This document shows positions 44,718 to 61,595 of a stretch of DNA of 64,000 nucleotides, one piece after another. The position numbers and the translations under genes are program-made. The notes beneath the pieces were generated by a model. It ran no database searches. It saw only the letters and a list, made by a program, of their open reading frames with translations, and was not told the DNA's origin. The DNA is from a virus. The stretch covers positions 62,001 to 126,000 of the IMG/VR virus record IMGVR_UViG_3300005542_000007; one strand, given 5' to 3'. Within the stretch, counting starts at the first letter, position 1, and every line of letters begins with the position of its first letter.

Positions 44718-44851
44718 ATATTCCTATTATTTCCAAATGGTTGAAGTCTCGTGAGAATAAAAAAGTTGTTGCGGCTTTCCTTAAATTGGAAATGAGAAAA
44801 GCTAGGATCATTGATTATAAAAGAAAATACAATATTAAAGATCCCAAATGA
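44714..44851 (+). CDS. Small basic protein
   Basis: 45 residues, coupled at both ends (ATGA at 44714 and 44848). Lys/Arg-rich helix (KLEMRKARIIDYKRKYNI). Function unknown; the tight double coupling is the main support that it is expressed. Confidence 0.5.
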   Translation: MNIPIISKWLKSRENKKVVAAFLKLEMRKARIIDYKRKYNIKDPK

Positions 44852-45828
44852 ACAAAATCCTCGAAGTTAAATTTGGCAGTCACCTCTATGGAACGGATAC
44901 CCCCGAAAGCGATCTCGATTTTAAAGGTATTTATTTACCAGACGCTCATCAAATTGTTTTGGGCAGAGCCAGTAAGAATGTCAGCACAAGCCGTTCAAAG
45001 CAAGAGTTTGAGAAGAATAGTAAAGATGATGTAGACCGAGAAACTTTCAGTCTCAAGGAATATTTGAAGCTCCTTTGTGAGGGACAAACTGTTGCTCTGG
45101 ACATGCTTTTCTCTCCCGAATCCTTTCATGTATTTAAAGGGGAAAATACTTACGTTTTGTTTCAATACATTTATCAGAATAAAGATAAAATCCTTTCCAA
45201 AGGTATTTTGAGTTTTGTCGGATACGCACAAAAACAAGCTTCGAAATACGGTATTAAAGGTTCTCGTGTTCGAGCAGTGAAAGATACAATTGAGTTTTTG
45301 AATGGCATTAAAGACGAGCAATCGCTGTTGAAAGAGATTCGAGTAGTACTAGATTCTTTTGTTGCCAGGGGCGATGAGTTCATCAAATACGTTGAGATGA
45401 CAGATCCCAACAATGTTCTGGTTACTTATTTTGAAGTGTGTAACCGTAAATTTCAAATGACGAACTCTGTTAAATATGTGTTGTCCATCCTAAATAGAAT
45501 TTACAATGAATATGGACAACGGGCAAAGTTGGCTGAAGTTAACGATGGGATTGATTGGAAGGCGCTGAGTCATGCCGTGCGCGTAAATTTTGAAGGACAG
45601 GAATTGTTAAAGACTGGGTTCATTACTTTTCCCTGCCCGGAGAGAAAGCTCCTTCTGGATATCAAAACAGGCAAGGTACCGTATAAAGAAGTAGAGGTAT
45701 TAATTGAGACTGGATTGCAGGATTTAGAAACAGCACAGAAAGCTTCTAAGCTGCCAGAGAAGCCCGATTTGGAATGGGCTGATAATTTCTTATACGATGT
45801 TTACAGCGATATTGTGAAACGAGGATAA
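44848..45828 (+). CDS. RlaP-like nucleotidyltransferase
   Basis: 326 residues. The polymerase-beta-superfamily signature GSHLYGTDTPESDLDFKG (residues 10-27) supplies the two catalytic Asp (D22, D24) and the GS motif. The rest is helical and matches the layout of RlaP-type enzymes found in phages and bacteria near RNA-repair genes. It transfers nucleotides to an unknown acceptor, possibly tRNA or RNA ends; a tRNA cluster is 3 kb upstream. Confidence 0.7.
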   Translation: MNKILEVKFGSHLYGTDTPESDLDFKGIYLPDAHQIVLGRASKNVSTSRSKQEFEKNSKDDVDRETFSLKEYLKLLCEGQTVALDMLFSPESFHVFKGENTYVLFQYIYQNKDKILSKGILSFVGYAQKQASKYGIKGSRVRAVKDTIEFLNGIKDEQSLLKEIRVVLDSFVARGDEFIKYVEMTDPNNVLVTYFEVCNRKFQMTNSVKYVLSILNRIYNEYGQRAKLAEVNDGIDWKALSHAVRVNFEGQELLKTGFITFPCPERKLLLDIKTGKVPYKEVEVLIETGLQDLETAQKASKLPEKPDLEWADNFLYDVYSDIVKRG

Positions 45829-45831: not shown

Positions 45832-46155
45832 ATGAATACAATAACACGTCAAGAAGCTACAGAAGAGCAACTAGAAGAAATTCATCACCATATTCACGCT
45901 TACATGGATTCTCTCGCAGAGTGTTTAGAGGGCGTTGATGTCGCAGGTATCCCGGTGGCTGACGGCATTAAAATGATCCTGGGAGTGGGGGTGAAGGCAG
46001 GGGCTTTGGGTAAGTTTGAGAACTTAAATATTACGGATTCTGAGGTGTCTTTTGACGCTTGGATCAGAATTGGAATGAACAATCCTGGGCTTTATTACAA
46101 GTTAAAAACAGTCATAAATATAGACGAAAAACGAGCTAGTGTAATTGAGTATTAA
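45832..46155 (+). CDS. Hypothetical protein
   Basis: 107 residues. Acidic helix at the N-terminus (EEQLEEIHHHIHAYMDSLAE), then a beta-rich half (DAWIRIGMNNPGLYYKLKTV). No family recognised. A promoter follows. Confidence 0.5.
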   Translation: MNTITRQEATEEQLEEIHHHIHAYMDSLAECLEGVDVAGIPVADGIKMILGVGVKAGALGKFENLNITDSEVSFDAWIRIGMNNPGLYYKLKTVINIDEKRASVIEY

Positions 46156-46163
46156 AATAACCC

Positions 46164-46192
46164 TTGACAAACGTAAAATTATCTGCTAAACT
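46164..46192 (+). promoter_or_regulatory. Sigma70-like promoter
   Basis: TTGACA 46164-46169, 17-bp spacer, TAAACT 46187-46192. TAGGAGGGA provides an RBS for ATG 46212. Confidence 0.75.
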
Positions 46193-46211
46193 ATACTAGG
46201 AGGGAATGAAA

Positions 46212-46361
46212 ATGGACTACAGAAATCTGAAAATTCTTCTGCTTGGAATATTGCTTGGAGCGATGCTCTTAGCAGGTGGGATGGTATTCAACGCGCTATC
46301 GAATATGTTCCACAATCTTCAAGTTAAATACACTGAACAAGGAGTGCTTTTAAAACTATGA
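46212..46361 (+). CDS. Small single-pass membrane protein
   Basis: 49 residues, too small for a routine ORF cut-off, with its own promoter and RBS. Segment ILLLGILLGAMLLAGGMVF is a clear transmembrane helix with a basic N-terminus, so the C-terminus is probably periplasmic or extracellular. ATGA overlap with the next gene. May be an envelope effector; unknown. Confidence 0.65.
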   Translation: MDYRNLKILLLGILLGAMLLAGGMVFNALSNMFHNLQVKYTEQGVLLKL

Positions 46362-46573
46362 GTTTACTAAAATGTGTGCATTGTAAAGTGTTTTTAATTC
46401 ACAGTCAAGATGAGCTTAAAAGGCATGAAGCTAAATATCACGATTACCAAGTTTCTAATTATGAGCCGCACCATCATCGTCCTTTGAGCAAAGAAGAATT
46501 CAAAGCGATTGTGGTTCGTGGAGAAGAGAAGTTTAAACACGCTATTATTACAACGCCTGATTTAGTAAAGTAG
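46358..46573 (+). CDS. Small C2H2 zinc-finger protein
   Basis: 71 residues. CVHCKVFLIHSQDELKRHEAKYH is a C2H2-type finger (CxxC, x12, HxxxxH). Basic C-terminus follows. Such fingers in phages are usually DNA-binding or adaptor proteins. Coupled to the membrane protein gene. Confidence 0.65.
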   Translation: MSLLKCVHCKVFLIHSQDELKRHEAKYHDYQVSNYEPHHHRPLSKEEFKAIVVRGEEKFKHAIITTPDLVK

Positions 46574-46624
46574 TAGATGTACTGGCTAAGGCCAGCAATG
46601 ACAACACGAAAGGAAGAAATTAAC

Positions 46625-47932
46625 ATGAAGAAGCTACTAGTTACAATCGCTTTGGTTATGAGTGTTGCCACTCTAGGCCGAACAGCGAACGTCACAGATA
46701 CAGGTCCAGGAACAACGGGAGATGTTCTTTACTTCACAGGTCAGGCGGGAAATGATCAAGGAACTTGGAGCAACTTGCCAAGTTTGGTTCAAACTATCAT
46801 CAACAACAACACTGTTGTTCCTGCCACAGTCGGTACGAGCCTTAACAGCAGTGCAGTGAGTACAGTTGGTAACGTTGATATTACTGGTTCAGGAATCACC
46901 CAAACAGTTACAGGTTCTGGAGCAACAGGAACGTCAAGTTATAACTTCAACAACTTGTCAACTACTGAAGGACAGACGAACGCGACCAACATCAGCAATC
47001 TGTCAAGCACTGTTGGTGGAAATACAACTCAAATCAACCAGAATACTTCGGACATCAGCAACATTCAGAACTTGTCCGATAATAGTCTGTTGACGCAGAC
47101 CGTTAATAACCACACGAGCCAAATCAGCACGTTGAATTCAAATGTTGCGTCAATTAACAACATGAGTGATCCAACCACGGTTCTCAATCAAACGGTGAAT
47201 GGCAATACGGCTGGTATTTCTGCTATTAATAACATGTCTGACCCAAGCACGGTCTTGAATCAGACTGTTAATGGAAACACGACGGCAATTGCAAATGAAA
47301 CAACTCGTGCCACTGGCGCGGAAACTACCTTGTCGAATGGTTTGTCAAATGAGGCCGCTACACGAGCTTCTGCTGATACAACCCTTCAAAACAACATTAA
47401 CAATGAAGCTACGACCCGCGCTTCTGCGGATCAGGCGTTGCAGAACCAAATCAACAACGTTAATGCTCAGGCGCAAGACAATACAAACCGCATTGATCGT
47501 TTGGAGCAAACAAAATACCTGTTGGAGCCTACCGTTCGACTTTACGACGATAAGCATTTCCAGGTTCAGGCGTTTGATTCTTACGATGTTCGCCACTCGA
47601 TGAACTTTGCGGCTGGCTTGCGGGTTATGTTCAAGGTTGGTCCTTCCTATGAAGAGAAGCTACTTAAGAAGACCAATCCTGAGATTGCTCGTCTGCTGTC
47701 GGCTAACGTTAATCACGATATTGTGGAACGTGATGAAATTCGCAAACAGCTTGCTGAGGATCGTGCTCTTATCGCAGAACAATCTGCATTGCTTAAGCAA
47801 TTGAGTGCAAAGGGTGACAACGTGGTTCTGAATGCCTCTGCCCCATCGAAGGCTGAAGCTAAGTTTGTGAATGGTGGAGATGATGATCTTCTGAAGGCCA
47901 TGGAAGACCGTAACGAGAAGTTTGGAAAGTAA
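46625..47932 (+). CDS. Secreted stalk protein, YadA-like composition
   Basis: 436 residues from ATG 46625 (RBS GGAAG), with signal peptide KKLLVTIALVMSVATLGRTA. Residues about 120-260 are a repetitive Asn/Ser/Thr stalk (NNMSDPTTVLNQTVNGNTA twice; NETTRATGAETT; NNINNEATTRASADQAL) like trimeric autotransporter stalks. A distal unit (TVRLYDDKHFQVQAFDSYD, then LRVMFKVGPSYEEKLL) recurs in the gene at 48012. Helical tail to the end. It looks more GC-rich than its neighbours. Probably displayed on the infected cell. Confidence 0.65.
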   Translation: MKKLLVTIALVMSVATLGRTANVTDTGPGTTGDVLYFTGQAGNDQGTWSNLPSLVQTIINNNTVVPATVGTSLNSSAVSTVGNVDITGSGITQTVTGSGATGTSSYNFNNLSTTEGQTNATNISNLSSTVGGNTTQINQNTSDISNIQNLSDNSLLTQTVNNHTSQISTLNSNVASINNMSDPTTVLNQTVNGNTAGISAINNMSDPSTVLNQTVNGNTTAIANETTRATGAETTLSNGLSNEAATRASADTTLQNNINNEATTRASADQALQNQINNVNAQAQDNTNRIDRLEQTKYLLEPTVRLYDDKHFQVQAFDSYDVRHSMNFAAGLRVMFKVGPSYEEKLLKKTNPEIARLLSANVNHDIVERDEIRKQLAEDRALIAEQSALLKQLSAKGDNVVLNASAPSKAEAKFVNGGDDDLLKAMEDRNEKFGK

Positions 47933-47949
47933 TTAAAGCTAAACTGTAA

Positions 47950-47972
47950 AGCCCTGAGAAATCGGGGCTTTC
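47950..47972 (+). terminator. Rho-independent terminator
   Basis: AGCCCTGA pairs with TCGGGGCT (one G-U) around a GAAA tetraloop, followed by TTTC. Located 17 bases after the stalk gene stop. Confidence 0.75.
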
Positions 47973-48011
47973 AGTGTAGTTTTAAATAAAGACACGAAAG
48001 GATAAGAATAA

Positions 48012-48524
48012 ATGAACAAGAAAACAGTAATGGCCATTCTGTTTACAAGTTTATTTGTTGCTTCTTTGGCTTCTGCCAATTGCGGCAGCAATGGTAATGG
48101 AAACGGAAACGGTTGTGGTGGTAGTACAGGTTCTGGATCACAAGGTCCCGCAGGTCCTCAAGGACCGCAGGGAAATTCTGGAAGCAACGGAACTAATGGT
48201 GCAAATGGTTTAAACGGAGTGGCTGGAGCAAATGGAACTAACGGAATAAATGGCATTAACGGAGTTGATGCTGTAAATCAATCTCGCCTACTTGGTGAGT
48301 TGGACCTTCGAATCTGGGATACAAAGCGCACGTCTTTCTATGCCTTTGATTCTTATGGGTTCGATGACGCTCCTGGACACGATGTATTATTGGATGGCCG
48401 TAATGCCTTTTATGGCGCTAAGTTTGTTGTTAAGCTTGGCTCCTCATATGAGGAACGAATGTTGGATAAGCAAGCGGCTCAGATTAAGGCGCTTGAAGCA
48501 GCCCTAGAAAAGTTGTCCAAGTAG
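48012..48524 (+). CDS. Secreted collagen-like protein
   Basis: 170 residues with signal peptide VMAILFTSLFVASLASANC and Gly-X-Y and Asn-Gly runs (GPAGPQGPQGNSGSNGTNG). The C-terminal 75 residues match the end of the 46625 protein: FYAFDSYGF, then FVVKLGSSYEERMLDK against FKVGPSYEEKLLKK. So two adjacent secreted proteins share a terminal domain with different stalks. AAAGGATAAGAATAA is the RBS. Confidence 0.7.
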   Translation: MNKKTVMAILFTSLFVASLASANCGSNGNGNGNGCGGSTGSGSQGPAGPQGPQGNSGSNGTNGANGLNGVAGANGTNGINGINGVDAVNQSRLLGELDLRIWDTKRTSFYAFDSYGFDDAPGHDVLLDGRNAFYGAKFVVKLGSSYEERMLDKQAAQIKALEAALEKLSK

Positions 48525-48593
48525 ACTTTCCTCCGTTCCTGGGGTGCTTCCTCCCCGATGGTGGTTAGCATCGAGCGGGAACGGGGATGAAGT
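48525..48593 (+). ncRNA. Predicted three-way-junction structured RNA
   Basis: Outer stem ACTT...CCTCCGTTCC pairs with GGAACGGGG...AAGT. Two internal hairpins are GGGG-TGCTTCCT-CCCC and GATG-GTGGTTAG-CATC. It starts one base after the stop of the 48012 gene and has no U tract, so it is not a standard terminator. It is far more GC-rich than the flanks. Confidence 0.5.
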
Positions 48594-48614
48594 CTTAAAA
48601 TAGAAAGGAATAAA

Positions 48615-48752
48615 ATGGAAATTATAAGAGATTACGAAGAAGTATTGAGTATGGCGATGCCACATCCAATGGAATCAGTTATGGGACGATTGGTTACAAA
48701 AGGAATTGTTCCTGAAGAAGCCGCCCGAAGATTCTTGTTGGAAACGAAATGA
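48615..48752 (+). CDS. Small hypothetical protein
   Basis: 45 residues, RBS AAAGGAATAAA, ATGA overlap with the next gene. Contains SMAMPHPMESVMGRLVTKGI. No known family. Confidence 0.55.
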   Translation: MEIIRDYEEVLSMAMPHPMESVMGRLVTKGIVPEEAARRFLLETK

Positions 48753-49012
48753 AAATCCTTCCCCTCTTGTTCTTGAGTAGTACGGTGCTTGCCTACGACC
48801 AGCCAAGGGTTGAAGATCCACATACCGTACTGTCAAAGCTCGACCACATCATTTCTTTGAAAAACACCAACGTCAGCTTGCGCGGAGTAAATGATGTGAA
48901 CCTAACCCACAAGCTTGTTGGGTCTTCTCGATTGAATTTTGAAGGATACGGCAGGTACAATTTAACACGGCATGATTCTGAAAGTGGCGTACACTTCAAA
49001 TTCAAATGGTAA
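48749..49012 (+). CDS. Small secreted protein
   Basis: 87 residues with signal peptide LPLLFLSSTVLAYDQ. The mature part ends in a strand-rich GYGRYNLTRHDSESGVHFKF segment that looks like outer-membrane-type beta-strands, similar in flavour to the ends of the two secreted proteins upstream. Possibly a third member of a surface cluster. Unknown function. Confidence 0.55.
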   Translation: MKILPLLFLSSTVLAYDQPRVEDPHTVLSKLDHIISLKNTNVSLRGVNDVNLTHKLVGSSRLNFEGYGRYNLTRHDSESGVHFKFKW

Positions 49013-49239
49013 AATTAGCAATACATCGAGGCAGCAAATTTGTAGCCAAAAACACCTTCTTCGAAAATGTCGATCAAGTTGTTATTTTTGAGGGAATACA
49101 AAAGACAGGATTTGCTGATTTTCCAGATTTCCCAATCTACACTCTCACAAGGAAAGTAGATAGTCACCCAGAAGGAAGTACCATCTCTCGCATGGAATTA
49201 AAGAAGTATGGGTACGTTTTGCCAGAAGAGGCTCCTTAG
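49006..49239 (+). CDS. Hypothetical protein
   Basis: 77 residues starting inside the end of the secreted protein gene. Mixed composition (VVIFEGIQKTGFADFPDFPI). Unknown function. Confidence 0.45.
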   Translation: MVKLAIHRGSKFVAKNTFFENVDQVVIFEGIQKTGFADFPDFPIYTLTRKVDSHPEGSTISRMELKKYGYVLPEEAP

Positions 49240-49240
49240 A

Positions 49241-49555
49241 GTGGAACCCAAAATTGTTAATTTGATTTGTCCTAAGTGCCGTCTGACCTGGATGTGCAAA
49301 AATGGTAGTGATAAATTTTACTTTTGTTACGCCTGTTCGTTTATTTTATTCGATAAGCAGGTTGAAGGCGGCTTGACAAACAACAAAGGGTCTGGTATAA
49401 TGAAATGTATGAGAACCAAACTATACAATTTTTTCAATAGCCCTTGGGTTGCCTTCCCATTGATGATCCTTCTTGTGGCCGCACTTTTTGTTGTAGCAAT
49501 AAAATGTCAGTCCTGGCATTTCCTAAAACTTTCATGTTTGGAGAGAGCGTTATGA
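49241..49555 (+). CDS. Zinc ribbon-membrane fusion, or two overlapping genes
   Basis: 104 residues, GTG start just after the previous stop. CPKCRLTWMCKNG and CYAC form a zinc ribbon in the first 45 residues; the last 48 (from ATG 49409) have a transmembrane helix FPLMILLVAALFVVAI. A perfect sigma70 promoter (49373-49401) lies in the middle of the frame with its -10 seven bases before ATG 49409. So the membrane half may be a separately expressed leaderless protein, or this may be one two-domain protein. Confidence 0.5.
   Translation: MEPKIVNLICPKCRLTWMCKNGSDKFYFCYACSFILFDKQVEGGLTNNKGSGIMKCMRTKLYNFFNSPWVAFPLMILLVAALFVVAIKCQSWHFLKLSCLERAL
49373..49401 (+). promoter_or_regulatory. Perfect sigma70 promoter inside the 49241 frame
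   Basis: TTGACA 49373-49378, 17-bp spacer, TATAAT 49396-49401. Confidence 0.75.
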
Positions 49556-49632
49556 AACACGTTAATAAACGAGCTTTGGTTTTGGCGTTGTTAGATTTGA
49601 TTGCAGTTATTCTTTTGCTTTTGGTGAGGTAA
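49552..49632 (+). CDS. Tiny membrane peptide
   Basis: 26 residues (MKHVNKRALVLALLDLIAVI...). GGAGAGAGCGTT before the ATG is a good RBS and the ATGA overlap couples it to the previous gene. Single hydrophobic helix; could be a membrane effector. Kept because the signals are strong despite its size. Confidence 0.45.
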   Translation: MKHVNKRALVLALLDLIAVILLLLVR

Positions 49633-49636
49633 CGGT

Positions 49637-49771
49637 ATGGAAAATAACGGCCACAAATACAAGCACCATTGCAAGGCACAAGCTGGGAATTGTCCTTGGT
49701 GTACCAAATGTGAGAATTGTGGAGAGATTTGGATTAACTGTTCGTATAAAGAATGTTTAAAAAAAGGATAA
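49637..49771 (+). CDS. Small Cys-rich zinc protein
   Basis: 44 residues. CPWCTKCENCGEIWINC gives dense Cys pairs; His-rich start GHKYKHHC. Different from the zinc-tag family: it has no DNLxYIE tail. GAGGTAACGGT precedes the ATG. Confidence 0.5.
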   Translation: MENNGHKYKHHCKAQAGNCPWCTKCENCGEIWINCSYKECLKKG

Positions 49772-49775
49772 TTAA

Positions 49776-50180
49776 ATGGCTTCAAAAGAATATATGCGTA
49801 ATTGGTACTTAAAAAATAGGGAAAGAAATTTGGAGAAGGCCAAAATTTATCGTCAATCTTATCCAGGGGCTCAACGAATGAGAGAAAAACGTTTACGTGG
49901 GCAGACATTTATAAATGAAGCAAAAAATAAACCTTGTATGGATTGTGGTGTTCGTTATGCTTCTTGGATAATGCAGTTTGACCACAGAGATCCAACACAA
50001 AAGAGATTTACAATTTCATCTTCTACTTCCCGTTCCTTTGTAGATTTACAAATTGAAATGGATAAATGCGATGTTGTATGTGCTAATTGTCATGCAGAAA
50101 GAACGCATAAATTAGGTAAATTGTTTAGACCAGGAAGACCAGTCGCGGAACGGAAATATACTAAAAGGAGTCCAAAGTGA
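49776..50180 (+). CDS. HNH homing endonuclease
   Basis: 134 residues. CMDCGVRYASWIMQFDHRDP and CANCHAERTHKLG are the Cys pairs and HNH core. The basic N-terminus (YMRNWYLKNRERNLEKA) resembles the repeat region of the 23891 endonuclease. It sits just before clpP-like and is probably a mobile free-standing nuclease. RBS AAAGGATAATTAA. ATGA-type overlap (GTGA) with the next gene. Confidence 0.75.
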   Translation: MASKEYMRNWYLKNRERNLEKAKIYRQSYPGAQRMREKRLRGQTFINEAKNKPCMDCGVRYASWIMQFDHRDPTQKRFTISSSTSRSFVDLQIEMDKCDVVCANCHAERTHKLGKLFRPGRPVAERKYTKRSPK

Positions 50181-50803
50181 ATATTATCCCCACTGTGGTA
50201 GAAAAAATGACCGGAGCGGGGTCAATGGTTTCCTACGACCTCCTTTCCCGTTTGATGCAAGATAGAATTTTATTCGTAGGTGGCAATCACGGAGCCATAA
50301 GTTTGGACGATGCTAATATCCTAATTTCGCAGCTTCTTTATTTGGATTCGATTGACCCAGGTAAGAAAATTGAAATGTACATCAATTCTCCAGGTGGGGA
50401 GGTTTCAGCGGGCCTTGCTATTCTGGATACAATGAATCACATCCAAAGTCCTATCACGACAATCTGTTTAGGAATGGCAATGTCTTTTGGGGCTGTTCTA
50501 TTGAGTGCTGGGGAACCGGGAAAACGTTTTGCTCTTCCAAATGCCCGTATCATGATTCACCAACCATTGATTTCTGGAGGTGGGATATCGGGTCAGGCGA
50601 CTGACATTGAAATTGAAGCAAAGGAAATGACTCATTGCAAAACATCCCTTACAAAAATCCTCGCAGCCAACTGCAATCAGAAATACGAGAAGGTTTTGAA
50701 GGATTGCGAACGCAATTTTTATATGTCAGCAGAGGAAGCAAAAGAGTATGGGTTGATTGATAACGTGATTGTTCCGCACAGGAAATTGGATAAACACGTT
50801 TAG
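50177..50803 (+). CDS. ClpP-like protease with Asn in place of catalytic Asp
   Basis: 208 residues, GTG start. Clearly ClpP: IPTVVEKM, YINSPGGEVSAGLAI, GMAMSFGAVLLSAG with nucleophile S103, ARIMIHQPL with H128, and a C-terminal YMSAEEAKEYGLIDNV. The residue aligned with the Asp of bacterial ClpP (DRD-F-L) is N180 (CERNFYMSAEEA). Listeria ClpP1 also has Asn there and needs a partner for full activity. It could mix with host ClpP and retune it. No Clp ATPase gene in this window. Confidence 0.85.
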   Translation: MNIIPTVVEKMTGAGSMVSYDLLSRLMQDRILFVGGNHGAISLDDANILISQLLYLDSIDPGKKIEMYINSPGGEVSAGLAILDTMNHIQSPITTICLGMAMSFGAVLLSAGEPGKRFALPNARIMIHQPLISGGGISGQATDIEIEAKEMTHCKTSLTKILAANCNQKYEKVLKDCERNFYMSAEEAKEYGLIDNVIVPHRKLDKHV

Positions 50804-50806
50804 AAA

Positions 50807-50968
50807 ATGAGAAACAAGAAAAAAGCAAAACGGATAAAGAAAGCACCTAGGAAAAAGTTGGCGGTTAAACCAGCGGTAGATTGTGTCTGCCCTGAAAATG
50901 ATTGGGAAACTTCTGATGAACAAAGCTTCTTTGGAAGTGGCGACTTCCTTTACGATGATCTTCTTTAA
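50807..50968 (+). CDS. Small basic/acidic bipartite protein
   Basis: 53 residues, Lys/Arg-rich start (NKKKAKRIKKAPRKK), acidic end (DWETSDEQSFFGSGDFLYDD). TAATG overlap with the next zinc-tag gene. Bipartite charge suggests nucleic-acid contact plus a protein-binding tail; function unknown. Confidence 0.5.
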   Translation: MRNKKKAKRIKKAPRKKLAVKPAVDCVCPENDWETSDEQSFFGSGDFLYDDLL

Positions 50969-51156
50969 TGAAAACGTTGCGTAAACCAGCCATACCTTGC
51001 ATTTGTGGACACAGCCGGACATCTCATAAAGGTTGGGGACATTGGAAAGTATGTATGGACCCGCTTATTGATTTTGAAGAGTGTGAATGCGATAAATATG
51101 TTCCAGACAATCTCTCTTACATAGAGAAGCTTGCAAAAAAGAAAAAGCTAGTATGA
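50968..51156 (+). CDS. Zinc-tag family protein 5 (upstream of PRPP-synthetase-like gene)
   Basis: 62 residues. CICGHSRTSHKGWGHWKVC plus FEECECDKY; tail VPDNLSYIEKLAKKKKLV. Stop overlaps ATG 51153 as gtATGA. Confidence 0.75.
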   Translation: MKTLRKPAIPCICGHSRTSHKGWGHWKVCMDPLIDFEECECDKYVPDNLSYIEKLAKKKKLV

Positions 51157-51929
51157 TAAAATTAAACGGCAGAACAATTACTCCGACCGTATTTCCCGAC
51201 CACTCTTCCCAGGTGTGGAAGGTGCCGGAAGAGTGTTTCCATGTACCAGGGAATGTCATTACTTGGGAATTTGAGAACGAGGCTGAATTTTTACACGTCG
51301 CACAACTCAAGGACCTTATCCACAGCGTGGTGGGATATGGGGAAGTGATTTTGGACCTTCCCTACCTTCCTTACGCAAGACAGGATAAAGAAGTTTCAAA
51401 TAAATCGACCTTTGCACTGCATACGTTTGCAAGGTTGTTAAATTCATTGGAATTTACGAAGGTTGTGGTTTTTGACGCACACAACTACTCTTTGTCGTAT
51501 GAGTTGATTAATTGTCTCGACATTGTTATCCCGGACATCGAACCTCTTGCCAAAGAATTAAATGCTACGGTTGTATACCCAGATTCTGGTGCCGGGACAC
51601 GCTACCAAGATTCTTCAGTTGGGGACGTTATCATTTGTGAGAAAGAAAGAGATCCCTTGACAGGTGAAATCAAAGGTCTTTTAATCAACGATAACATTGA
51701 AGCCGGAACTTATTTGATTGCGGATGACATTTGCGACGGTGGCAGGACGTTCATTGAAGTGGCTAAGAAGCTTTACAAATTCGGAGCTACAGAAGTGCAT
51801 TTGTATGTGTCACATGGGATTTTTTCAAAAGGGCTGCAAGTATTACGAGATGCTGGAATCAAACGAATCTTTACACGAAAAGGAGAAGTACATGAGCAAC
51901 GATTATTTGCCAGCGACACTACTGTGTGA
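51153..51929 (+). CDS. PRPP-synthetase-like enzyme (candidate Adps)
   Basis: 258 residues, shorter than the roughly 310 of bacterial Prs. Core motifs: YLPYARQDKEVSNKSTFAL (ATP/ribose-phosphate loop), VVVFDAHNYSL and the PRT loop LIADDICDGGRTF (residues 188-200). The next gene, overlapping by 38 bases, is NAMPT-like. That pairing is the architecture of the NARP1 pathway, where the Prs-like Adps turns ADP-ribose into ADPR-pyrophosphate. A conventional PRPP supply for NAMPT is the alternative. Confidence 0.75.
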   Translation: MIKLNGRTITPTVFPDHSSQVWKVPEECFHVPGNVITWEFENEAEFLHVAQLKDLIHSVVGYGEVILDLPYLPYARQDKEVSNKSTFALHTFARLLNSLEFTKVVVFDAHNYSLSYELINCLDIVIPDIEPLAKELNATVVYPDSGAGTRYQDSSVGDVIICEKERDPLTGEIKGLLINDNIEAGTYLIADDICDGGRTFIEVAKKLYKFGATEVHLYVSHGIFSKGLQVLRDAGIKRIFTRKGEVHEQRLFASDTTV

Positions 51930-53403
51930 TTTCTACAAGGTCAGCCACCGCGCCCAGTATCCAAAAGGGACGGAAGTGGTGTATTCAACGTGGACGCCAA
52001 GAACATCTCGTTTACTCGACGTTCAGGAAGTGGTTCACTTTGGTGCCCAGGCATTCATCAAAGAATTCCTGATTGAATTCTTCAACAAGAATTTCTTTGA
52101 GCGAGAGCAGGAAGATGTTGTGAACGAATACAAACGAGTGATTCAGTATGCTTTGGGTGATTCTGCTCCCGCCTTTGAGCACATTATTGAATTGCACAAT
52201 TTGGGTTACTTACCGCTTAAAATTAAATCGTTGCCAGAAGGCTCCGTGGTTCCTCTTAGGGTTCCTACATTAACAGTTCAAAATACCCATCCTAAGTTTT
52301 TCTGGCTCACCAACTATATTGAAACTCTCCTTTCTGCCGAGATGTGGCAAGCTTCCACTTCCGCCACAATTGCCAGAGAGTATCGAAGAGTGTTTGAAAA
52401 GTACGCTTTGGAAACGGCTGGCGGTATTGATTTCGTTCAGTTTCAAGGCCACGACTTCTCTATGCGTGGTATGGGAACAGTAGCATCTGCCATAAAGAGC
52501 GGCATGGGACATCTGCTTTCTTTTGCAGGAACGGATACAATTCCAGCAATTCTGGGCTTGGAGCATTACTACAACGCCAACATTGAAAAGGAATTGGTTG
52601 GTACTTCAATCCCTGCTACAGAGCATTCTGTGATGTGTGCTAATGGTCGTGATGAATTCGCCGCTTATAAACGAATTATTACAGAGGTATACCCCAAGGG
52701 ATTTGTATCTATTGTGTCGGATACTTGGGATTTGTGGGAAGTGTTGGATAAAGTAGTTCGTCCTTTGAAGGACACAATCCTTGCTCGTGAAGGCAAAGTA
52801 GTTATTCGTCCAGATAGCGGAGACCCAGTTAAGATTGTTACGGGCGACCCAGAAGGAAAGACAGAGGCAGCACGTAAAGGCGTAATTGAAATCCTGTGGG
52901 ATATTTTTGGCGGCACGTATAACATTGTATGGGACGGTGAGAAAAATGTTGGATACAGGCAACTCGACCCACACATTGGTTGTATTTATGGGGATGCTAT
53001 TACTCGAACTCGTGCTCAGGATATTTGTGAAAGGCTAAAGGCAAAAGGCTTTGCCTCGACCAATATGGTATACGGCATTGGCTCTTATACATACCAGTAT
53101 AATACTCGTGATACTTTTGGGTATGCTATGAAGAGTACCCTTTGTGTTATTAACGGGCAAGAAGTTCAAATCTTCAAAGATCCTGTTACAGATAACGGAG
53201 TAAAAAAGTCACAGAAAGGTGGAGTAAGAGTATTCGAACATAATGGAGAATTAGTATATTTGGATCAATTTTCCTTGGCCGAATCTAATGAAAACACACT
53301 GCTAAGGGATGTATTCGTCGATGGTAAACTATTGGTGGATGAGAAGTTTTCAGATATCAAGGCAAGAGTTCTTCAATCGTTGGAACAAAAAGCTTCTGTA
53401 TGA
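51892..53403 (+). CDS. NAMPT-like nicotinamide transferase (candidate Namat)
   Basis: 503 residues from ATG 51892 (AAGGAG RBS). LLCDFYKVSHRAQYPKGTEV, then MWQASTSATIAREYR, SIPATEHSVMCA with the catalytic-type His, and VIRPDSGDPVKIV are the NAMPT/NadV family blocks. NAMPT joins nicotinamide to PRPP. NARP1 Namat joins nicotinamide to ADPR-pyrophosphate and makes NAD+ directly. Start codon lies within the preceding gene, so the two are translated together. Confidence 0.85.
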   Translation: MSNDYLPATLLCDFYKVSHRAQYPKGTEVVYSTWTPRTSRLLDVQEVVHFGAQAFIKEFLIEFFNKNFFEREQEDVVNEYKRVIQYALGDSAPAFEHIIELHNLGYLPLKIKSLPEGSVVPLRVPTLTVQNTHPKFFWLTNYIETLLSAEMWQASTSATIAREYRRVFEKYALETAGGIDFVQFQGHDFSMRGMGTVASAIKSGMGHLLSFAGTDTIPAILGLEHYYNANIEKELVGTSIPATEHSVMCANGRDEFAAYKRIITEVYPKGFVSIVSDTWDLWEVLDKVVRPLKDTILAREGKVVIRPDSGDPVKIVTGDPEGKTEAARKGVIEILWDIFGGTYNIVWDGEKNVGYRQLDPHIGCIYGDAITRTRAQDICERLKAKGFASTNMVYGIGSYTYQYNTRDTFGYAMKSTLCVINGQEVQIFKDPVTDNGVKKSQKGGVRVFEHNGELVYLDQFSLAESNENTLLRDVFVDGKLLVDEKFSDIKARVLQSLEQKASV

Positions 53404-53416
53404 AAGGGCGAAAAAC

Positions 53417-53596
53417 TTGAGTAATTGTGGTTCTTGTGGAATTGAAGTTCCTGAAGGGCAGCGCCATTGTTCAATGTGTTACGGCGATCCCTACTATGGG
53501 AGTGATGGATATTATTTGGCGTGGTTAGAAGACGCATATCGACAGGAACAAGAGAAGCCGCAATATGAAGAAGGGCCACAGCAGGAGCCCCAATGA
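53417..53596 (+). CDS. Small zinc ribbon protein
   Basis: 59 residues from TTG 53417 (AAAGGG RBS 7 bases upstream). CGSCGIEVPEGQRHCSMC is a classic zinc ribbon, followed by an acidic Gln/Glu tail. Overlaps the next start by ATGA. Confidence 0.55.
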   Translation: MSNCGSCGIEVPEGQRHCSMCYGDPYYGSDGYYLAWLEDAYRQEQEKPQYEEGPQQEPQ

Positions 53597-53790
53597 ACAA
53601 GCGTGTTGCTTACCTCTACATTCTCACAGTATTCTTTGTTGTGGGATTTTATCTGTTTGGTAAGGGTGAAGTATTTGGAATAGAAAGATACAAACACAGC
53701 AAAAATATGTATGGAGCCCTCAAAGCAGCTTATCGAATGGGATACGAAGATGCTAAAGCAGGGCGTTCTATGGACTGGGATGGGGAATAA
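53593..53790 (+). CDS. Small membrane protein
   Basis: 65 residues. AYLYILTVFFVVGFYLFG is a transmembrane helix near the N-terminus; the remaining part (YGALKAAYRMGYEDAKAGR) is helical. Overlaps the next gene start by one base. Confidence 0.55.
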   Translation: MNKRVAYLYILTVFFVVGFYLFGKGEVFGIERYKHSKNMYGALKAAYRMGYEDAKAGRSMDWDGE

Positions 53791-54713
53791 TGAAAGACCT
53801 TATTATGTCGGATGACATTCCTCCCAAACCCATAGGAATTACGAATGGGACTATTACGCTAATGGAAGATGCTTCAGGACTTGCTAGTAAATTGGTTGTT
53901 CAATATCATTACAGCCATAAAACTACTCCCAATCATTTTTTAAGTTTTCTCGTTAATAAGGACCAGGGCGCTTTACAGTTGGGGTATGGTATTCGTCCTG
54001 CTATGAAGCATACCATTTCCAAAGATATTGTAAAGGGTAACTATTGCGAGTTTGATAGGATGTGGTTAAGTGATGTGATGCCAAAGAATAGTGAAAGCCA
54101 AGTTATCGCCTTGTTGTTGAGTTACTTAAAACAAGTACACCCGAGAATTAAATTCGTTATTACTTATGCGGATGAAAGTGTGGGTAATAAAGGTACAATT
54201 TATCAAGCTACCAATGCTATAGAACTTCCCAGTGTTCCAACGGATTTTTACTTGCTTCCTTCTGGTGAACGTATTCATCCTGTAACAATGTGGCATAGGC
54301 ACAAAACCAGAGCAAAAGCTTTTGTAGAGAAACAGTATCCCGGTATTAAACACATTAAAGGAACGTATAAACAACGACGTTATTTATACATTCTTAATAA
54401 CGGTTTGCGGAGAAAGTTTCAAGAGCGAAACGATGTGCTTCCAGCACATAAGGCGAAGTGCGATTCTTCGGCTCCGCTCCAATTTAAGCAAACTAAAAGT
54501 GACGTTATTTTTAAAGAGGTGTTTGATATGAAAAAATTCAATGAAGAATACCCAAAAGTGGTAGAAGGACTGCGGTTATTTTTAGGCGAAATTTACCTTG
54601 CCTTGGAAGAGGGCAAAACCATTTCTAAGGATAATTTTGCCGAGGGTTGCAAAATGCATTTAGGAAACTTAAAACAGTTTATTAGCGACAATGAAACCCA
54701 ACGCCCTAACTAA
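53790..54713 (+). CDS. Mom-like DNA adenine modification protein
   Basis: 307 residues. The Mom family pattern is clear: LVVQYHYSHKTTPNHF, then CEFDRMWLSDVMPKNSESQV, FVITYADESVGNKGTIYQAT and FYLLPSGERIHP. Mom (phage Mu) converts adenines to a modified base that blocks many restriction enzymes. The C-terminal 110 residues are an extra helical part. This is an anti-restriction gene by inference from the family. Confidence 0.75.
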   Translation: MKDLIMSDDIPPKPIGITNGTITLMEDASGLASKLVVQYHYSHKTTPNHFLSFLVNKDQGALQLGYGIRPAMKHTISKDIVKGNYCEFDRMWLSDVMPKNSESQVIALLLSYLKQVHPRIKFVITYADESVGNKGTIYQATNAIELPSVPTDFYLLPSGERIHPVTMWHRHKTRAKAFVEKQYPGIKHIKGTYKQRRYLYILNNGLRRKFQERNDVLPAHKAKCDSSAPLQFKQTKSDVIFKEVFDMKKFNEEYPKVVEGLRLFLGEIYLALEEGKTISKDNFAEGCKMHLGNLKQFISDNETQRPN

Positions 54714-54864
54714 TTGCCAGAGTAAGAAAGCTTTCAAAACTCGCCAGGAAGCTGAGAGTGTAGCTTTGTCCCTTTGGTTTGACCACGAAGTTTACGTGGA
54801 TGTTTATAGCTGTCCAATCTGTGAAAATTACCATTTCACTTCTGGAGATAAAAATGACAGATAA
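54691..54864 (+). CDS. Small Cys-containing protein
   Basis: 57 residues starting inside the mom-like gene. SKKAFKTRQEAESVALSLWF, then VDVYSCPICENYHFTS: a frequent small phage protein layout with one CxxC...H knuckle. Overlaps the next ORF by 11 bases. Confidence 0.55.
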   Translation: MKPNALTNCQSKKAFKTRQEAESVALSLWFDHEVYVDVYSCPICENYHFTSGDKNDR

Positions 54865-55015
54865 CTGTGTTCATCGAATCCTTGTCCACAAATACGATGT
54901 AGACGAGGCAATGCCGCGCATGATAGTTTACGTTTGTATGGATCGTACCTGCAACAAAGAATTTACAATTGTGATTGAAGACGAAACATATTTTGATGTG
55001 CAGGATCAAGTATGA
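54854..55015 (+). CDS. Small hypothetical protein
   Basis: 53 residues from ATG 54854 with TGGAGATAAAA as RBS. CVHRILVHKYDVDE, then YVCMDRTCNKEFTIV with two Cys. ATGA overlap with the next gene. Confidence 0.5.
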   Translation: MTDNCVHRILVHKYDVDEAMPRMIVYVCMDRTCNKEFTIVIEDETYFDVQDQV

Positions 55016-55365
55016 CAGATAAAGAACTTGAGCAGTTGAATGTCAAGATAGCTCGAAAGCTTGGTTGGAGAAAGTTTCGTTTAGAACGAACCCCAGAACC
55101 TATGAAAACCCAACGTATGACTGGAATCTCTTCAGGAAACTTTAGGCACCAATTTGTTCCGGCGTATACAAACAATCTTTCTTACGCTCTTCAAATTGTT
55201 GATTGGGCGAATCGGCATGGGTATGATTTTACATTGGGGAAATGTGCGGCTGGCGGTGCTGTATATATCGCGCATTTCAATAAACAATTCATTCCAAAAA
55301 GATATACAGGAAGAGGCACCCTTCCATCAATGGCAATTTGCATGGCATTTTTAAATATTAAGTGA
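55012..55365 (+). CDS. Phage ABA-sandwich-like protein
   Basis: 117 residues. KELEQLNVKIARKLGW, then YTNNLSYALQIVDWANRHGY and a C-terminal PSMAICMAFLNIK. This order matches the small phage ABA-sandwich domain family, whose function is unknown. The Arg/Lys-rich middle is an insertion relative to most members. GTGA-type overlap with the lipoprotein gene. Confidence 0.55.
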   Translation: MTDKELEQLNVKIARKLGWRKFRLERTPEPMKTQRMTGISSGNFRHQFVPAYTNNLSYALQIVDWANRHGYDFTLGKCAAGGAVYIAHFNKQFIPKRYTGRGTLPSMAICMAFLNIK

Positions 55366-55562
55366 GATATTTTTTAGCTAGTTTGTTCCTCCTATCAGGC
55401 TGTTCTATGTCCAATTTTTATGTATACGGCAACAAGCCGTATTGTTTGGTCCATTATAAAAGTAAATTTGTTGAGTGTTCCTTTGACAGTATGAATGAAT
55501 GCCGGAATAGATATCGAGACCGCGAAGCAACTCTTTGTTATCCATTGAAAAATATTAAATAG
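55362..55562 (+). CDS. Small lipoprotein
   Basis: 66 residues, GTG start. MRYFLASLFLLSGC ends in a lipobox (LSGC) for lipidation and envelope anchoring. The mature part has a CxxxxxxxCR pattern (ECSFDSMNECRNRYRDR). It could act in superinfection exclusion or lysis; its place beside a transporter gene fits envelope remodelling. Confidence 0.6.
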   Translation: MRYFLASLFLLSGCSMSNFYVYGNKPYCLVHYKSKFVECSFDSMNECRNRYRDREATLCYPLKNIK

Positions 55563-55568
55563 GTTCAT

Positions 55569-56741
55569 TTGCGATCCCTCTACCTTTTAGCAATTCTCAT
55601 TTTCTTTAACCAGGGCATTGGCTCTCTTGCTGCCCAACCTCTCTACTACTTCCTTCGGGAAACACTTGGAATTGGCATTCCCACAATTATGATGCTTGGG
55701 GCACTTGCCAATCTTCCCTGGCTGATTAAACCCGTATGGGGATTCCTCAGTGATTCATTCAGCATTTTTGGATATCGTAGGAAGAGTTACATTATTTTGT
55801 TTTCTCTTTTAGGGACGGTTTCTTTTCTTCTTATCGGTCTTTCACCGTTTATTTCCCTTCCCGTTCTTGTCGGTCTGATGATTTTAGGGTCGATTGGAGA
55901 AGCGGGCGGGAATGTAGCCGTAAATGGTATGGGGGTAGAAGAGGGAAACAAGGATGGAACGACAGGTAAGTTTCAGAGTGTTTGTTGGGGAGCATTGGGT
56001 GTGGGTTCCGTTCTTACTGGAGTTACGGGCGGTTACATAGCGGAAAAAGCCTCATACCACCTTGCTTTCGTTATATTGGCTCTTTTCCCTATCCTGATTG
56101 CTGTAATGGCCCTCCGGCATCCAGAGCAGAAAGCAGAAGCTTCACATAAAGCTGTAGGACCCATAATTAAAGACTTTCTAATAAAATTAAAAAATAAGCA
56201 GATTTTCCTTTGCAGCTTGTTTTTATTTTTCCTTTGGTTCAGCCCCTCTTTTGGAACACCCCTTTTGGACAGGATGCGAACAGTGCTCCACATGTCAAAA
56301 GTATGGATTGGCTGGCTTGACACGATTGGGTCTGCTTGCGGAATTGTCGGAGCTATGGTATACTTTAAAGTGAGTAAGAGTATAAACATGAAGCGTTGGT
56401 TGTACTACGGAACGGTCTTAAGTGCTTTGGCTACGTTTGCGTATTTGTACCTGACACCCACCACTTTGTTTTGGTACACAATAGTGTTTGGGGTAGCTTC
56501 ACAGTTCATTCATTTGTTGATGCTGAATCTTATGGCGATGACTTGTCCAGAGGGAACGGAAGCAACCACGTATGCTTTGCTGTGTTCCCTTGTTAATTGT
56601 GCATCTTTCTTTTCTAATTTGGTTGGAGCTAAATGCTTCGCTCTATTTGGGTATAACGGGTTGATTATTATTTCAGGAGTGACAACGCTCATGTGTTTGG
56701 GATTCATTCCGTATCTTGAGGTAAACAAAAATGTCTTGTAA
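55569..56741 (+). CDS. BT1-family MFS transporter (folate/pteridine-like)
   Basis: 390 residues with 11-12 hydrophobic helices. The start is TTG 55569. The N-terminal helix pair with QPLYYFLRETLGIG, then PWLIKPVWGFLSDSF and GYRRKSY, is the BT1 (folate/biopterin) signature. Later helices include FLWFSPSFGTPLLD and TYALLCSLVNCASFF. Function in phage: unknown; supply of a folate-like cofactor for ThyX is possible. Phage-encoded transporters of this family are very unusual. Confidence 0.7.
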   Translation: MRSLYLLAILIFFNQGIGSLAAQPLYYFLRETLGIGIPTIMMLGALANLPWLIKPVWGFLSDSFSIFGYRRKSYIILFSLLGTVSFLLIGLSPFISLPVLVGLMILGSIGEAGGNVAVNGMGVEEGNKDGTTGKFQSVCWGALGVGSVLTGVTGGYIAEKASYHLAFVILALFPILIAVMALRHPEQKAEASHKAVGPIIKDFLIKLKNKQIFLCSLFLFFLWFSPSFGTPLLDRMRTVLHMSKVWIGWLDTIGSACGIVGAMVYFKVSKSINMKRWLYYGTVLSALATFAYLYLTPTTLFWYTIVFGVASQFIHLLMLNLMAMTCPEGTEATTYALLCSLVNCASFFSNLVGAKCFALFGYNGLIIISGVTTLMCLGFIPYLEVNKNVL

Positions 56742-56874
56742 CTGTTACGATTGTCAGTATAAAGAAGAGCTTTATTTATTGAAAGCTTCGCAGGTAGCAC
56801 GACAACAACGGCTTGATATGGTCCTTCAAGAATTAGAAAAGGATCATTGGAGATTTGAAAAATATGCAAAATAG
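56731..56874 (+). CDS. Small Cys-containing protein
   Basis: 47 residues. Starts inside the transporter end (MSCNCYDCQYKEELYLLKA). Ends FEKYAK. Its stop-containing region has ATGCAAAATA, which is the start of the next gene. Confidence 0.5.
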   Translation: MSCNCYDCQYKEELYLLKASQVARQQRLDMVLQELEKDHWRFEKYAK

Positions 56875-57034
56875 AAAGTGTGATTTTCCTCAGACCCCGG
56901 AATTTACACAATGTTCTAAAGGTGAATTGCGTAAGTTGAAAATTCTAGGAAATACCATTGGAGTATTTTGTCAGCTTCACTATCATGTAATGCAATTAAT
57001 CGTATGGCTGAAAATGAAAAAACATGCAAAATAA
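56864..57034 (+). CDS. Small hypothetical protein
   Basis: 56 residues starting at ATGCAAAATA inside the previous gene and ending with the same string, which is the DnaB-like gene start. Contains CDFPQTPEFTQCSKGELRKL. Function unknown. Confidence 0.5.
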   Translation: MQNRKCDFPQTPEFTQCSKGELRKLKILGNTIGVFCQLHYHVMQLIVWLKMKKHAK

Positions 57035-58415
57035 AGAACTCGAATATAATTTTCTGAAGCACGTTCTTACCGATCCCAAATGTGTCCTGAAGGTGCAGGA
57101 ACGTGGAGTTGACGAGAGCTTCTTCGATATACCGACAGTCTCTAAGCTCTTTGGAATCACCATCCGGTATTTCCAAGCTTACAGCGTACTTCCAACCTCT
57201 GCCGATGTTGAGTTGGTCCTTTCTTCCAGCAAATATACAGCAAACTTAGGCGATGATTTTAAAAAACAAATCGCGGTCCTCTTCTCCGAAGTGTCAATCC
57301 TTTCCAATCCTCCAAATTTTGATCTTCTCCTCGACGAGTTGATTCAGTACCACAAAACTAATTTGTTCCAGCAATCCTTGTTTGCTGCTACTGAAGCTCT
57401 CACCAACAACAGTACGGATAAAGCGATTGAAGCGGTTAAGAAGTCGCTTGCCTCCATCGATAAGATTTTTGCTTCCAATTATGATTTGAACGGCAGCATC
57501 GAAGATAATGCGAAACCCCTTTGGGACCAGTTTTTGGATGCAGAGCAACATCCAGAAAAGTACAAGGGAATCAACGTAGGGTTTGATGGATTTGACAAAC
57601 TCACTGGTGGATTGGTTGGTGGGACAGTTACGTTAATTATCGGCGGATGGAAAAGTGCAAAATCCGTTCTCTCAATGAATATGGCGCACAACGTTGCGAC
57701 AAGTGATTTTGCAACTAAGAGGGTTGGCAAGCGAGTGTTGTACCATGTTAACGAGGGGCGGTTCGAGTTGAACCAAGCTCGTCTTGCCTCCTGCGCCACT
57801 GGAATCAATTATACCAGATTGAGCAGAGCTTTGAGGGGCCGCGTTATCTTTACCCAGGCAGAAAGAGATTTGTACGAAAAGTATTTAAAGGGAGATGAAT
57901 TTAAAGAGTTGCGTCACAACCTCATTATCGATTCAGCACCTCCTATCGTTAGTTCCGCTCGTTATGTTGGAGCAAAGATTAAAGAACACAAACCAGAGTT
58001 TGTTATCATCGACTACTTGGGGCTTTTAGGAACGGACCAGAGAGTGAAAGACGATAATGAGAAATTGGGTAAAGTGTCATCTGAAATTGTAGGGTTGGCA
58101 ATTGAACACAACGTACCTATTATCCTGATTGCTCACGTCAATAGGAAAGCGAAACAAGCAGCCGATAAAAATAACGAGGATTATGACAGCGAAGATATGG
58201 GATTGAGTATCGAACCGATTAAGAACGTGGACGCTGTTGTATCCTGGAGGATTGAAGACCCGGAACAATTTAAGCAAACACACAAGGGCATTGGAACGTT
58301 GGCAATTAGAGATGCCAGGAACGTAGAGACAGGAACGTGTCAGCTTTTGGTTGACACAAATTCGATGAGTATAAAGAACATCATTTATGGTGGGATGGGT
58401 GGGCAGCAGCCGTGA
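57024..58415 (+). CDS. DnaB-like replicative helicase
   Basis: 463 residues. N-terminal helical domain about 1-170, then RecA-like core: Walker A GGWKSAKS (207-214), Walker B VIIDYLGLLG, and ILIAHVNRKAK with later DAVVSWRIEDPEQ. This is the replicative helicase fold of DnaB and T4 gp41. The usual G before K(S/T) in Walker A is Ala here. The primase zinc domain is encoded 2 kb downstream. Confidence 0.85.
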   Translation: MQNKELEYNFLKHVLTDPKCVLKVQERGVDESFFDIPTVSKLFGITIRYFQAYSVLPTSADVELVLSSSKYTANLGDDFKKQIAVLFSEVSILSNPPNFDLLLDELIQYHKTNLFQQSLFAATEALTNNSTDKAIEAVKKSLASIDKIFASNYDLNGSIEDNAKPLWDQFLDAEQHPEKYKGINVGFDGFDKLTGGLVGGTVTLIIGGWKSAKSVLSMNMAHNVATSDFATKRVGKRVLYHVNEGRFELNQARLASCATGINYTRLSRALRGRVIFTQAERDLYEKYLKGDEFKELRHNLIIDSAPPIVSSARYVGAKIKEHKPEFVIIDYLGLLGTDQRVKDDNEKLGKVSSEIVGLAIEHNVPIILIAHVNRKAKQAADKNNEDYDSEDMGLSIEPIKNVDAVVSWRIEDPEQFKQTHKGIGTLAIRDARNVETGTCQLLVDTNSMSIKNIIYGGMGGQQP

Positions 58416-58573
58416 GTGATAAAGACAGACCCTGCAAAAACTGTGGAAGACCTGGATATTACCCCGTACATGACATTGTAGGTAGATGCCCAAATCGCAA
58501 TTTTTCATATTACGCACCAAAAGACAATCTCGATTACGTCGAGTGGCTTGCAGAGAAGAGAGGATTGGTATGA
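58412..58573 (+). CDS. Zinc-tag family protein 6
   Basis: 53 residues, GTG start in the DnaB stop (GTGA). CKNCGRPGYYPVH plus RCPN is a variant knuckle; tail PKDNLDYVEWLAEKRGLV. Overlaps ATG 58570 as gtATGA. Clear family member by its tail even though the front differs. Confidence 0.7.
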   Translation: MSDKDRPCKNCGRPGYYPVHDIVGRCPNRNFSYYAPKDNLDYVEWLAEKRGLV

Positions 58574-58686
58574 AGTTTAAATGCCCAAAAGGACATGCAA
58601 GAATGGAGTTGGTTATGGGTGTTGCTGGTGCTTATTGTGGCATCTGTGATAGGATTTACAGTTTTGCACAATTAAAAAAGGATTAA
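58570..58686 (+). CDS. Tiny zinc ribbon
   Basis: 38 residues: CPKGHARMELV, then CGICDRIYSF. AGAGGA (within the preceding gene) is the RBS. Function unknown. Confidence 0.5.
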   Translation: MKFKCPKGHARMELVMGVAGAYCGICDRIYSFAQLKKD

Positions 58687-58690
58687 TAGA

Positions 58691-59482
58691 ATGAGTTTAC
58701 TTAAACACATTTACAATTGGCGTAGGGATCTTCCAGACTGGAGAGATAAACGATACAGGGAGCATCGTTTGCTTGGAGCGTTGCCTCCCCCACCTCCAAT
58801 AGTGGATTTGCGTCAACAATGCAGCCCAGTGGAAGACCAAGGACAATTGGGTTCCTGTACATCCTTTGCTTGGGCAGGAATGCTTGAGTTTCTTGAATTG
58901 CAAGCTTTAAATAATAAAGTTGCTTCTCCTGAAATCCTCACCCCAACTTATACGCCCTTCTCCCATCTTTTCATTTATTACAATGAACGCTTTATTGATG
59001 GGGATGTGAGTCAAGATGGTGGATCACAATTGAGGACAGGAGCACAGGCTGTTGCAACTTATGGAGACTGTAGTGAACCCACTTGGCCGTATCAGATTGA
59101 ACAGGTATTTGTTAAACCCTCTGATGTTGCTTTTGCTGAAGCAGCTAATCACAAAATCAGCGTCTACTCCAGGCTGGAATCGGCTGAGGATTACAAAGCG
59201 TGTTTAGCTGAAGGATTTCCTTTTGTATTTGGTGCGACCTTATACGAGAGTTTTGAAAGTGGAGTTATAGCTTCCACAGGTATTGTTCCAATGCCTTCAA
59301 TGAACGAAAGTGACATTGGTGGACACGCAATCCTTTGTGTTGGGTACGATGAAACAAAGCAGCATTATATTGTGCGTAATTCTTGGGGAACGGGCTGGGG
59401 CGATAAAGGGTATTGTTACTTTCCAATGGAATATATGGAAAACCCAGACCTTTGTTCAGATATGTGGACGGCAAGGAAATAG
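58691..59482 (+). CDS. Papain-family (C1A) cysteine protease
   Basis: 263 residues. The triad is readable: DQGQLGSCTSFAW (Gln50 oxyanion hole, Cys56), GGHAILCVGYD (His212) and VRNSWGTGWGDKG (Asn230). No signal peptide, so it acts in the cytoplasm or on the virion. The N-terminal 40 residues (DLPDWRDKRYREH) are too short for a classic inhibitory prodomain. Such C1A enzymes are rare in phages; target unknown (prohead proteins, host factors or defence proteins). Confidence 0.85.
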   Translation: MSLLKHIYNWRRDLPDWRDKRYREHRLLGALPPPPPIVDLRQQCSPVEDQGQLGSCTSFAWAGMLEFLELQALNNKVASPEILTPTYTPFSHLFIYYNERFIDGDVSQDGGSQLRTGAQAVATYGDCSEPTWPYQIEQVFVKPSDVAFAEAANHKISVYSRLESAEDYKACLAEGFPFVFGATLYESFESGVIASTGIVPMPSMNESDIGGHAILCVGYDETKQHYIVRNSWGTGWGDKGYCYFPMEYMENPDLCSDMWTARK

Positions 59483-59483
59483 A

Positions 59484-59681
59484 ATGGAAGATTGGAAACT
59501 TCCTTGCACTTGTAAGCACAATAAAAATGCCCACCGAGGATTTCGTAGTATATATGGAGAATTTCATCGTACAGGTTGTAGACACAAATATTCTGATTTT
59601 TCAAGTTGCATTTGTTTTGGATTCAAACTCGACAACCTCAAACTAATAGAAGACTTAGCGAAAGAAAAAGGTTTGGTATGA
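59484..59681 (+). CDS. Zinc-tag family protein 7
   Basis: 65 residues from ATG 59484. CTCKHNKNAH, then GCRHKYSDFSSCICF as knuckles; tail GFKLDNLKLIEDLAKEKGLV is almost the same as in the 43273 protein. Overlaps the next start as gtATGA. Confidence 0.75.
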   Translation: MEDWKLPCTCKHNKNAHRGFRSIYGEFHRTGCRHKYSDFSSCICFGFKLDNLKLIEDLAKEKGLV

Positions 59682-61594: not shown

Positions 61595-61595
61595 G

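What the first reader, a model, noticed from the sequence alone, without database searches (positions are those of the whole stretch)
51153..53403. Candidate NAD+ reconstitution (NARP1-like) anti-defence operon
A shortened Prs-like enzyme (258 residues) overlaps by 38 bases a NAMPT-like enzyme. In the described NARP1 pathway a Prs homologue (Adps) converts ADP-ribose to ADPR-pyrophosphate and a NAMPT homologue (Namat) adds nicotinamide to make NAD+, countering defences that deplete NAD+. Gene order, overlap and families fit. A standard PRPP plus NMN route is the alternative; no NMN adenylyltransferase is seen nearby, which favours NARP1.
Basis: partly seen in the sequence, partly recalled or inferred. 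Interest (0 to 1): 0.8.

Follow-up and report, generated by a model that had tools for sequence, protein, structure and literature searches.

The report
Phage NAD+-rebuilding operon (NARP1)
A virus of bacteria carries two neighbouring genes that very probably rebuild the coenzyme NAD+ from its breakdown products, which would let it survive bacterial defences that destroy NAD+; this is a clear new example of a system already described, sitting in a slot that a close relative leaves empty.

Summary
Window 51153-51929 encodes a 258-aa Prs-like protein and 51892-53403 a 503-aa NAMPT-like protein, overlapping by 38 bp, in a 141,877-bp IMG/VR phage record. The NARP1 reading is supported. The second protein scores 704 bits against crystallised SpbetaL1 Namat and about 232 against mammalian NAMPT. 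All 20 NAD+-contact residues are kept (one as F to Y), including R40 and the clamp motif GSYTYQYNTRD, identical to the assayed Paenibacillus foliorum Namat. Trees put it inside Namat, away from NadV/NAMPT (support 100), and put its partner outside bacterial Prs (100/100), among Adps genes that sit beside Namat. 79 of 81 viral Namat loci have adps nearby; the other two are cut off. No NMN adenylyltransferase was found in the record. New here: a collinear relative (L206) lacks adps, namat and the neighbouring Mom gene, so NARP1 is an accessory cassette beside another likely anti-defence gene. The two operon genes also have different histories (the Adps pairs with L101, the Namat does not). The 38-bp overlap is a local oddity, not a hallmark. 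Substrate use and phage rescue remain unassayed. Ordinary but solid: a new member of a known kind.

The parts
51153..51929 (+). adps: ADP-ribose pyrophosphate synthetase homologue (Prs fold, 258 aa); the last 13 codons are an out-of-frame reading of the namat start
   Evidence: phrog_619 E 2e-60; outside the Prs clade; Prs-like AF2 model, mean pLDDT 91.7
51892..53403 (+). namat: nicotinamide ADP-ribose transferase homologue (503 aa) with intact core and adenine clamp (R40; GSYTYQYNTRD at residues 397-407)
   Evidence: 704 bits to SpbetaL1 Namat 9w5x; tree; residue table
51879..51891 (+). Shine-Dalgarno region (AAGGAGA) upstream of namat, inside adps
   Evidence: sequence read directly
50804..53601 (.). 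approximate extent of the accessory insertion that holds NARP1, absent from relative L206 (two small ORFs, adps, namat and a short stretch)
   Evidence: comparison with L206; no adps/namat anywhere in the L206 record
53790..54713 (+). neighbouring Mom-family DNA-modification gene, also absent from L206; not part of NARP1 but in the same hotspot
   Evidence: PF25680 E 2e-40; absent from L206's record

Best explanation
A phage NARP1 operon. When a host defence (TIR, SIR2 or a similar NADase) splits NAD+ into nicotinamide and ADP-ribose, the first enzyme (Adps) would add pyrophosphate from ATP to ADP-ribose, giving ADPR-PP. The second (Namat) would join nicotinamide to ADPR-PP, giving NAD+ directly without an NMN adenylyltransferase. 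Shown here: gene anatomy, family membership, intact catalytic and clamp residues, and presence/absence of the cassette between related phages. Inferred: the two reactions and the rescue of phage growth.
For: 704 bits to SpbetaL1 Namat versus about 232 to mammalian NAMPT. All 20 NAD+-contact residues kept, with the clamp motif identical to the assayed P. foliorum Namat. Namat tree, support 100 against Nampt/NadV. Adps tree, Prs clade 100/100 excluding the window. Prs loop DT(A/G)(G/S)T replaced by DGGRT, as in other Adps. adps within 4 kb of 79 of 81 viral namat loci. No PF01467 family gene in the record, with 14 of 14 controls positive. Collinear relative without the cassette.
Against: No substrate was assayed; Namat can also use PRPP in vitro (PMC12774641). 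P0001 is only 27-38% identical to Adps of named phages, and no Adps structure is solved to check its pocket. The host and its defences are unknown. The Namat tree used the quick method.
Confidence: 0.9

Rival explanations
1. Ordinary NAD+ salvage: a phage Prs makes PRPP and a NadV/NAMPT makes NMN, which the host's NMN adenylyltransferase turns into NAD+.
For: Both proteins belong to the wider Prs and NAMPT superfamilies, and Namat is reported to keep some PRPP activity in vitro (PMC12774641).
Against: Both trees exclude it; the adenine clamp is present and the Prs loop is changed; no NMN adenylyltransferase in the record, whereas two of the phage NadV genes sampled (Kikimora, KP13-7) lie near an annotated one.
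Confidence: 0.06
2. A decayed or repurposed NARP1 in which one enzyme no longer works, for example because of the altered Adps C-terminus.
For: The Adps tail is an out-of-frame extension not found in L101 and is disordered in the model (residues 250-258).
Against: Both frames are fully open, all invariant residues are kept, and the rest of the model is confident.
Confidence: 0.04
3. A three-part NARP1 in which the nearby BT1-family transporter (55569-56741) imports or exports a pathway metabolite.
For: In L101 a transporter of the same family lies 8 bp upstream of adps.
Against: Relative L206 has the transporter (89% identical) but no NARP1; no other NARP1 locus examined has it in its flanks.
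Confidence: 0.02

Closest known systems
NARP1 of Bacillus phage SpbetaL1 (Adps + Namat; PDB 9w5x, 9w5w)
   Same: Gene order, adjacency, Namat 62% identical with all NAD+ contacts kept
   Different: Adps only about 28% identical, with loop DDICDGGRTF instead of DDLSSFGGTF; 38-bp overlap
NARP1 of Paenibacillus foliorum (pfAdps, pfNamat; assayed in PMC12774641)
   Same: Identical clamp motif GSYTYQYNTRD and R40
   Different: Bacterial chromosomal copy; Adps from the Bacillota branch
L101, IMGVR_UViG_3300015360_000046
   Same: Closest Adps relative (65-67%), same operon order
   Different: Namat from the ctKR88 branch (57% to the window); 4-bp overlap
Phage NadV/NAMPT, such as Vibrio phage KVP40
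   Same: NAMPT superfamily with shared catalytic core
   Different: 29% identical, no adenine clamp motif, separate clade

Membership tests
NARP1 | adps and namat genes together | tested here: met
   overlapping ORFs; the same pairing in 79 of 81 viral relatives
NARP1 | Namat clamp helix motif GSX-X-X-TRD with aromatics at motif positions 3 and 7 | tested here: met
   GSYTYQYNTRD, residues 397-407
NARP1 | Namat clamp loop stacking residue (Arg, Lys or Tyr at the third position) | tested here: met
   R40, as in SpbetaL1
NARP1 | Nampt-like catalytic core (F189, D215, R306, catalytic His) | tested here: met
   all present at the same positions, H245 included
NARP1 | Namat phylogeny separate from Nampt | tested here: met
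   support 100
NARP1 | Adps phylogeny separate from Prs | tested here: met
   Prs clade 100/100 excludes the window
NARP1 | NAD+ made from ADP-ribose, ATP and nicotinamide | not testable with these tools
   needs enzyme assay
NARP1 | rescue of phage or cells from NAD+-depleting defence | not testable with these tools
   needs laboratory test
Canonical Prs + NadV salvage | first protein within the Prs clade with loop DT(A/G)(G/S)T | tested here: not met
   loop reads DGGRT; outside the clade
Canonical Prs + NadV salvage | second protein within the NadV/Nampt clade | tested here: not met
Canonical Prs + NadV salvage | NMN adenylyltransferase encoded by the phage | tested here: not met
   no PF01467 hit in the 141.9-kb record; controls 14 of 14; a host enzyme is not excluded

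The most novel reading that the evidence does not exclude
A compact anti-defence hotspot: a NARP1 cassette and a Mom DNA-modification gene, both missing from a collinear relative, in which Adps and Namat partners have been exchanged independently between phages (the window and L101 share the Adps lineage but not the Namat lineage). This would imply that the two NARP1 enzymes need no matched pairing.
Probability: 0.45. Interest if true: 0.4.

Novelty: new member of a known kind. Interest (0 to 1): 0.3.

Why it matters
It extends NARP1 to an uncultured phage with no nucleotide-level match in this region among 50,697 deposited phage records. It gives a natural with/without pair of related phage records, with the cassette at one locus. 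It also suggests that the two genes of the operon can have different histories, which fits the report that Adps and Namat form no stable complex (PMC12774641). The Adps loop difference (DGGRTF or SYGGTF versus Prs DTAGT) is a testable sequence marker for Adps, whose substrate selectivity was still called obscure in that paper's introduction.

Tried and rejected
A BT1 transporter as a third NARP1 component: rejected because L206 has the transporter without NARP1. RyR-domain (RyDEP), NUDIX and macro-domain partners in the record: none found; the RyR search had no positive control, so it shows little. Bacterial NAMPT outgroup by phylum sampling: only the query's own genome matched, so Xcc Nampt and six phage NadV served instead. 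Megablast of 46000-64000 against phages: no match. Host assignment by terminase: only remote matches, best Bacillus phage G at 29%, so the host is unknown. The original NARP1 paper (Osterman et al. 2024, Nature) was not read; its content is taken from citing papers (PMC12774641, PMC11559045, PMC13232231).

Full report
Observation. The two ORFs are exactly where stated. The window is bases 62001-126000 of a 141,877-bp IMG/VR virus record. The namat start at 51892 has AAGGAGAAGTAC directly upstream. The family assignments are strong.

Namat. Against solved structures, P0002 scores 704 bits with SpbetaL1 Namat (9w5x), 502 with 9ke8, and only about 232 with mammalian NAMPT. PMC12774641 lists the residues that touch NAD+ and defines the selectivity clamp. 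Mapping them onto the window shows every contact kept; F392 is Y399, as in the assayed P. foliorum enzyme, whose clamp-helix motif GSYTYQYNTRD is identical. KVP40, Miro, Kikimora and Xcc Nampt have GGG or GGA at the start of that motif. In a 105-row tree the Nampt group (Xcc plus six phage NadV) separates from 98 Namat rows with support 100, and the window lies deep within the latter. That tree used the quick method and flagged some NadV and Namat rows as long branches; the window row was not among them.

Adps. P0001 has a Prs fold (AF2 mean pLDDT 91.7; best PDB matches are PRPP synthetases, TM 0.66-0.74). It lacks the C-terminal part of Prs, as other Adps do (median 269 aa versus 312-345). 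K164, R166, D191 and D192 are invariant across 38 Adps. The loop that in Prs reads DT(A/G)(G/S)T and, by general knowledge of phosphoribosyltransferases, holds the ribose 5-phosphate, reads DGGRT here and DGG(R/M/A)T or S(Y/K/F)GGT in most other Adps. This fits a substrate whose 5-phosphate is joined to AMP; that step is inference. In a 108-row tree, 13 Prs from Namat-bearing bacteria form one clade (100/100, branch 2.35) that excludes the window.

Context across genomes. 79 of 81 viral Namat relatives carry adps within the fetched flanks of about 4 kb, 75 of them upstream; the two exceptions are cut by contig ends. Bacterial genomes (Paenibacillus, Cohnella, Flavobacteriaceae) carry the pair too. 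No NMN adenylyltransferase-type (PF01467) or NUDIX hit occurs in the window's record, whereas two of the NadV phages sampled, Kikimora and KP13-7, have an annotated NMN adenylyltransferase/NUDIX gene nearby.

Accessory cassette. L206 (IMGVR_UViG_3300020123_000589, 151 kb) is collinear with the window (DnaB gene 83% and clpP 82% nucleotide identity). In it, clpP is followed after about 14 bp by sequence homologous to window ORF 53593-53790. Adps and Namat were not found anywhere in that record, nor was the Mom gene that follows in the window. So about 2.8 kb with NARP1, and separately Mom, were gained in one line or lost in the other. Mom proteins modify phage DNA against restriction (general knowledge of phage Mu Mom), so this spot looks like an anti-defence hotspot. 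The caveat is that both records are linear and may be incomplete.

Mixed history. L101 shares its Adps with the window (65-67% identity, sister at 100/99), but its Namat belongs with ctKR88 (69% to ctKR88, 57% to the window). At the junction L101 has ATGA (4-bp overlap), whereas in the window the frame relation differs and Adps reads on into namat. The resulting tail is disordered in the model (residues 250-258). The long overlap is therefore incidental.

Verdict. NARP1 membership is met on every feature that could be tested. Enzyme activity and counter-defence remain to be assayed. This is a new member of a known kind, with modest added interest from the empty-site relative and the likely partner exchange.

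Noticed in passing
window 55569-56741; L101 2719-3993; L206 8001-9167: A BT1-family major-facilitator transporter is encoded by this phage and two relatives, with no match among 50,697 deposited phages; a phage-borne transporter of this family is unusual and its cargo is unknown.
   Followed up: partly
window 53790-54713: Mom-family DNA-modification gene next to NARP1, absent from relative L206.
   Followed up: partly
L207 16344-16856 (L209): Macro-domain protein in the L101 phage, about 5 kb downstream of its NARP1 operon; phage Adele also has a macro-domain gene downstream of NARP1 (PMC12846349).
   Followed up: no
L006 4475-4906: In crAss-like phage cr111_1 the order is namat first, then a small gene with a weak haloacid-dehalogenase match, then adps.
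   Followed up: no
window P0001 and P0002 versus phrog_12872: One PHROG of about 547 positions matches Adps in its first half and Namat in its second, which suggests fused Adps-Namat proteins in some phages.
   Followed up: no
window 44848-45828 and L016 1670-2800: RlaP-type nucleotidyltransferase and a T4-type RNA ligase in the same phage, suggesting an RNA repair capacity.
   Followed up: no
window 58691-59482: Papain-family cysteine protease gene, unusual in a phage.
   Followed up: no
L017 11833-12546: DeoC-family aldolase gene in the same phage record.
   Followed up: no
L004 5580-6506: TerC-family membrane protein shortly after namat in Cronobacter phage A24.
   Followed up: no
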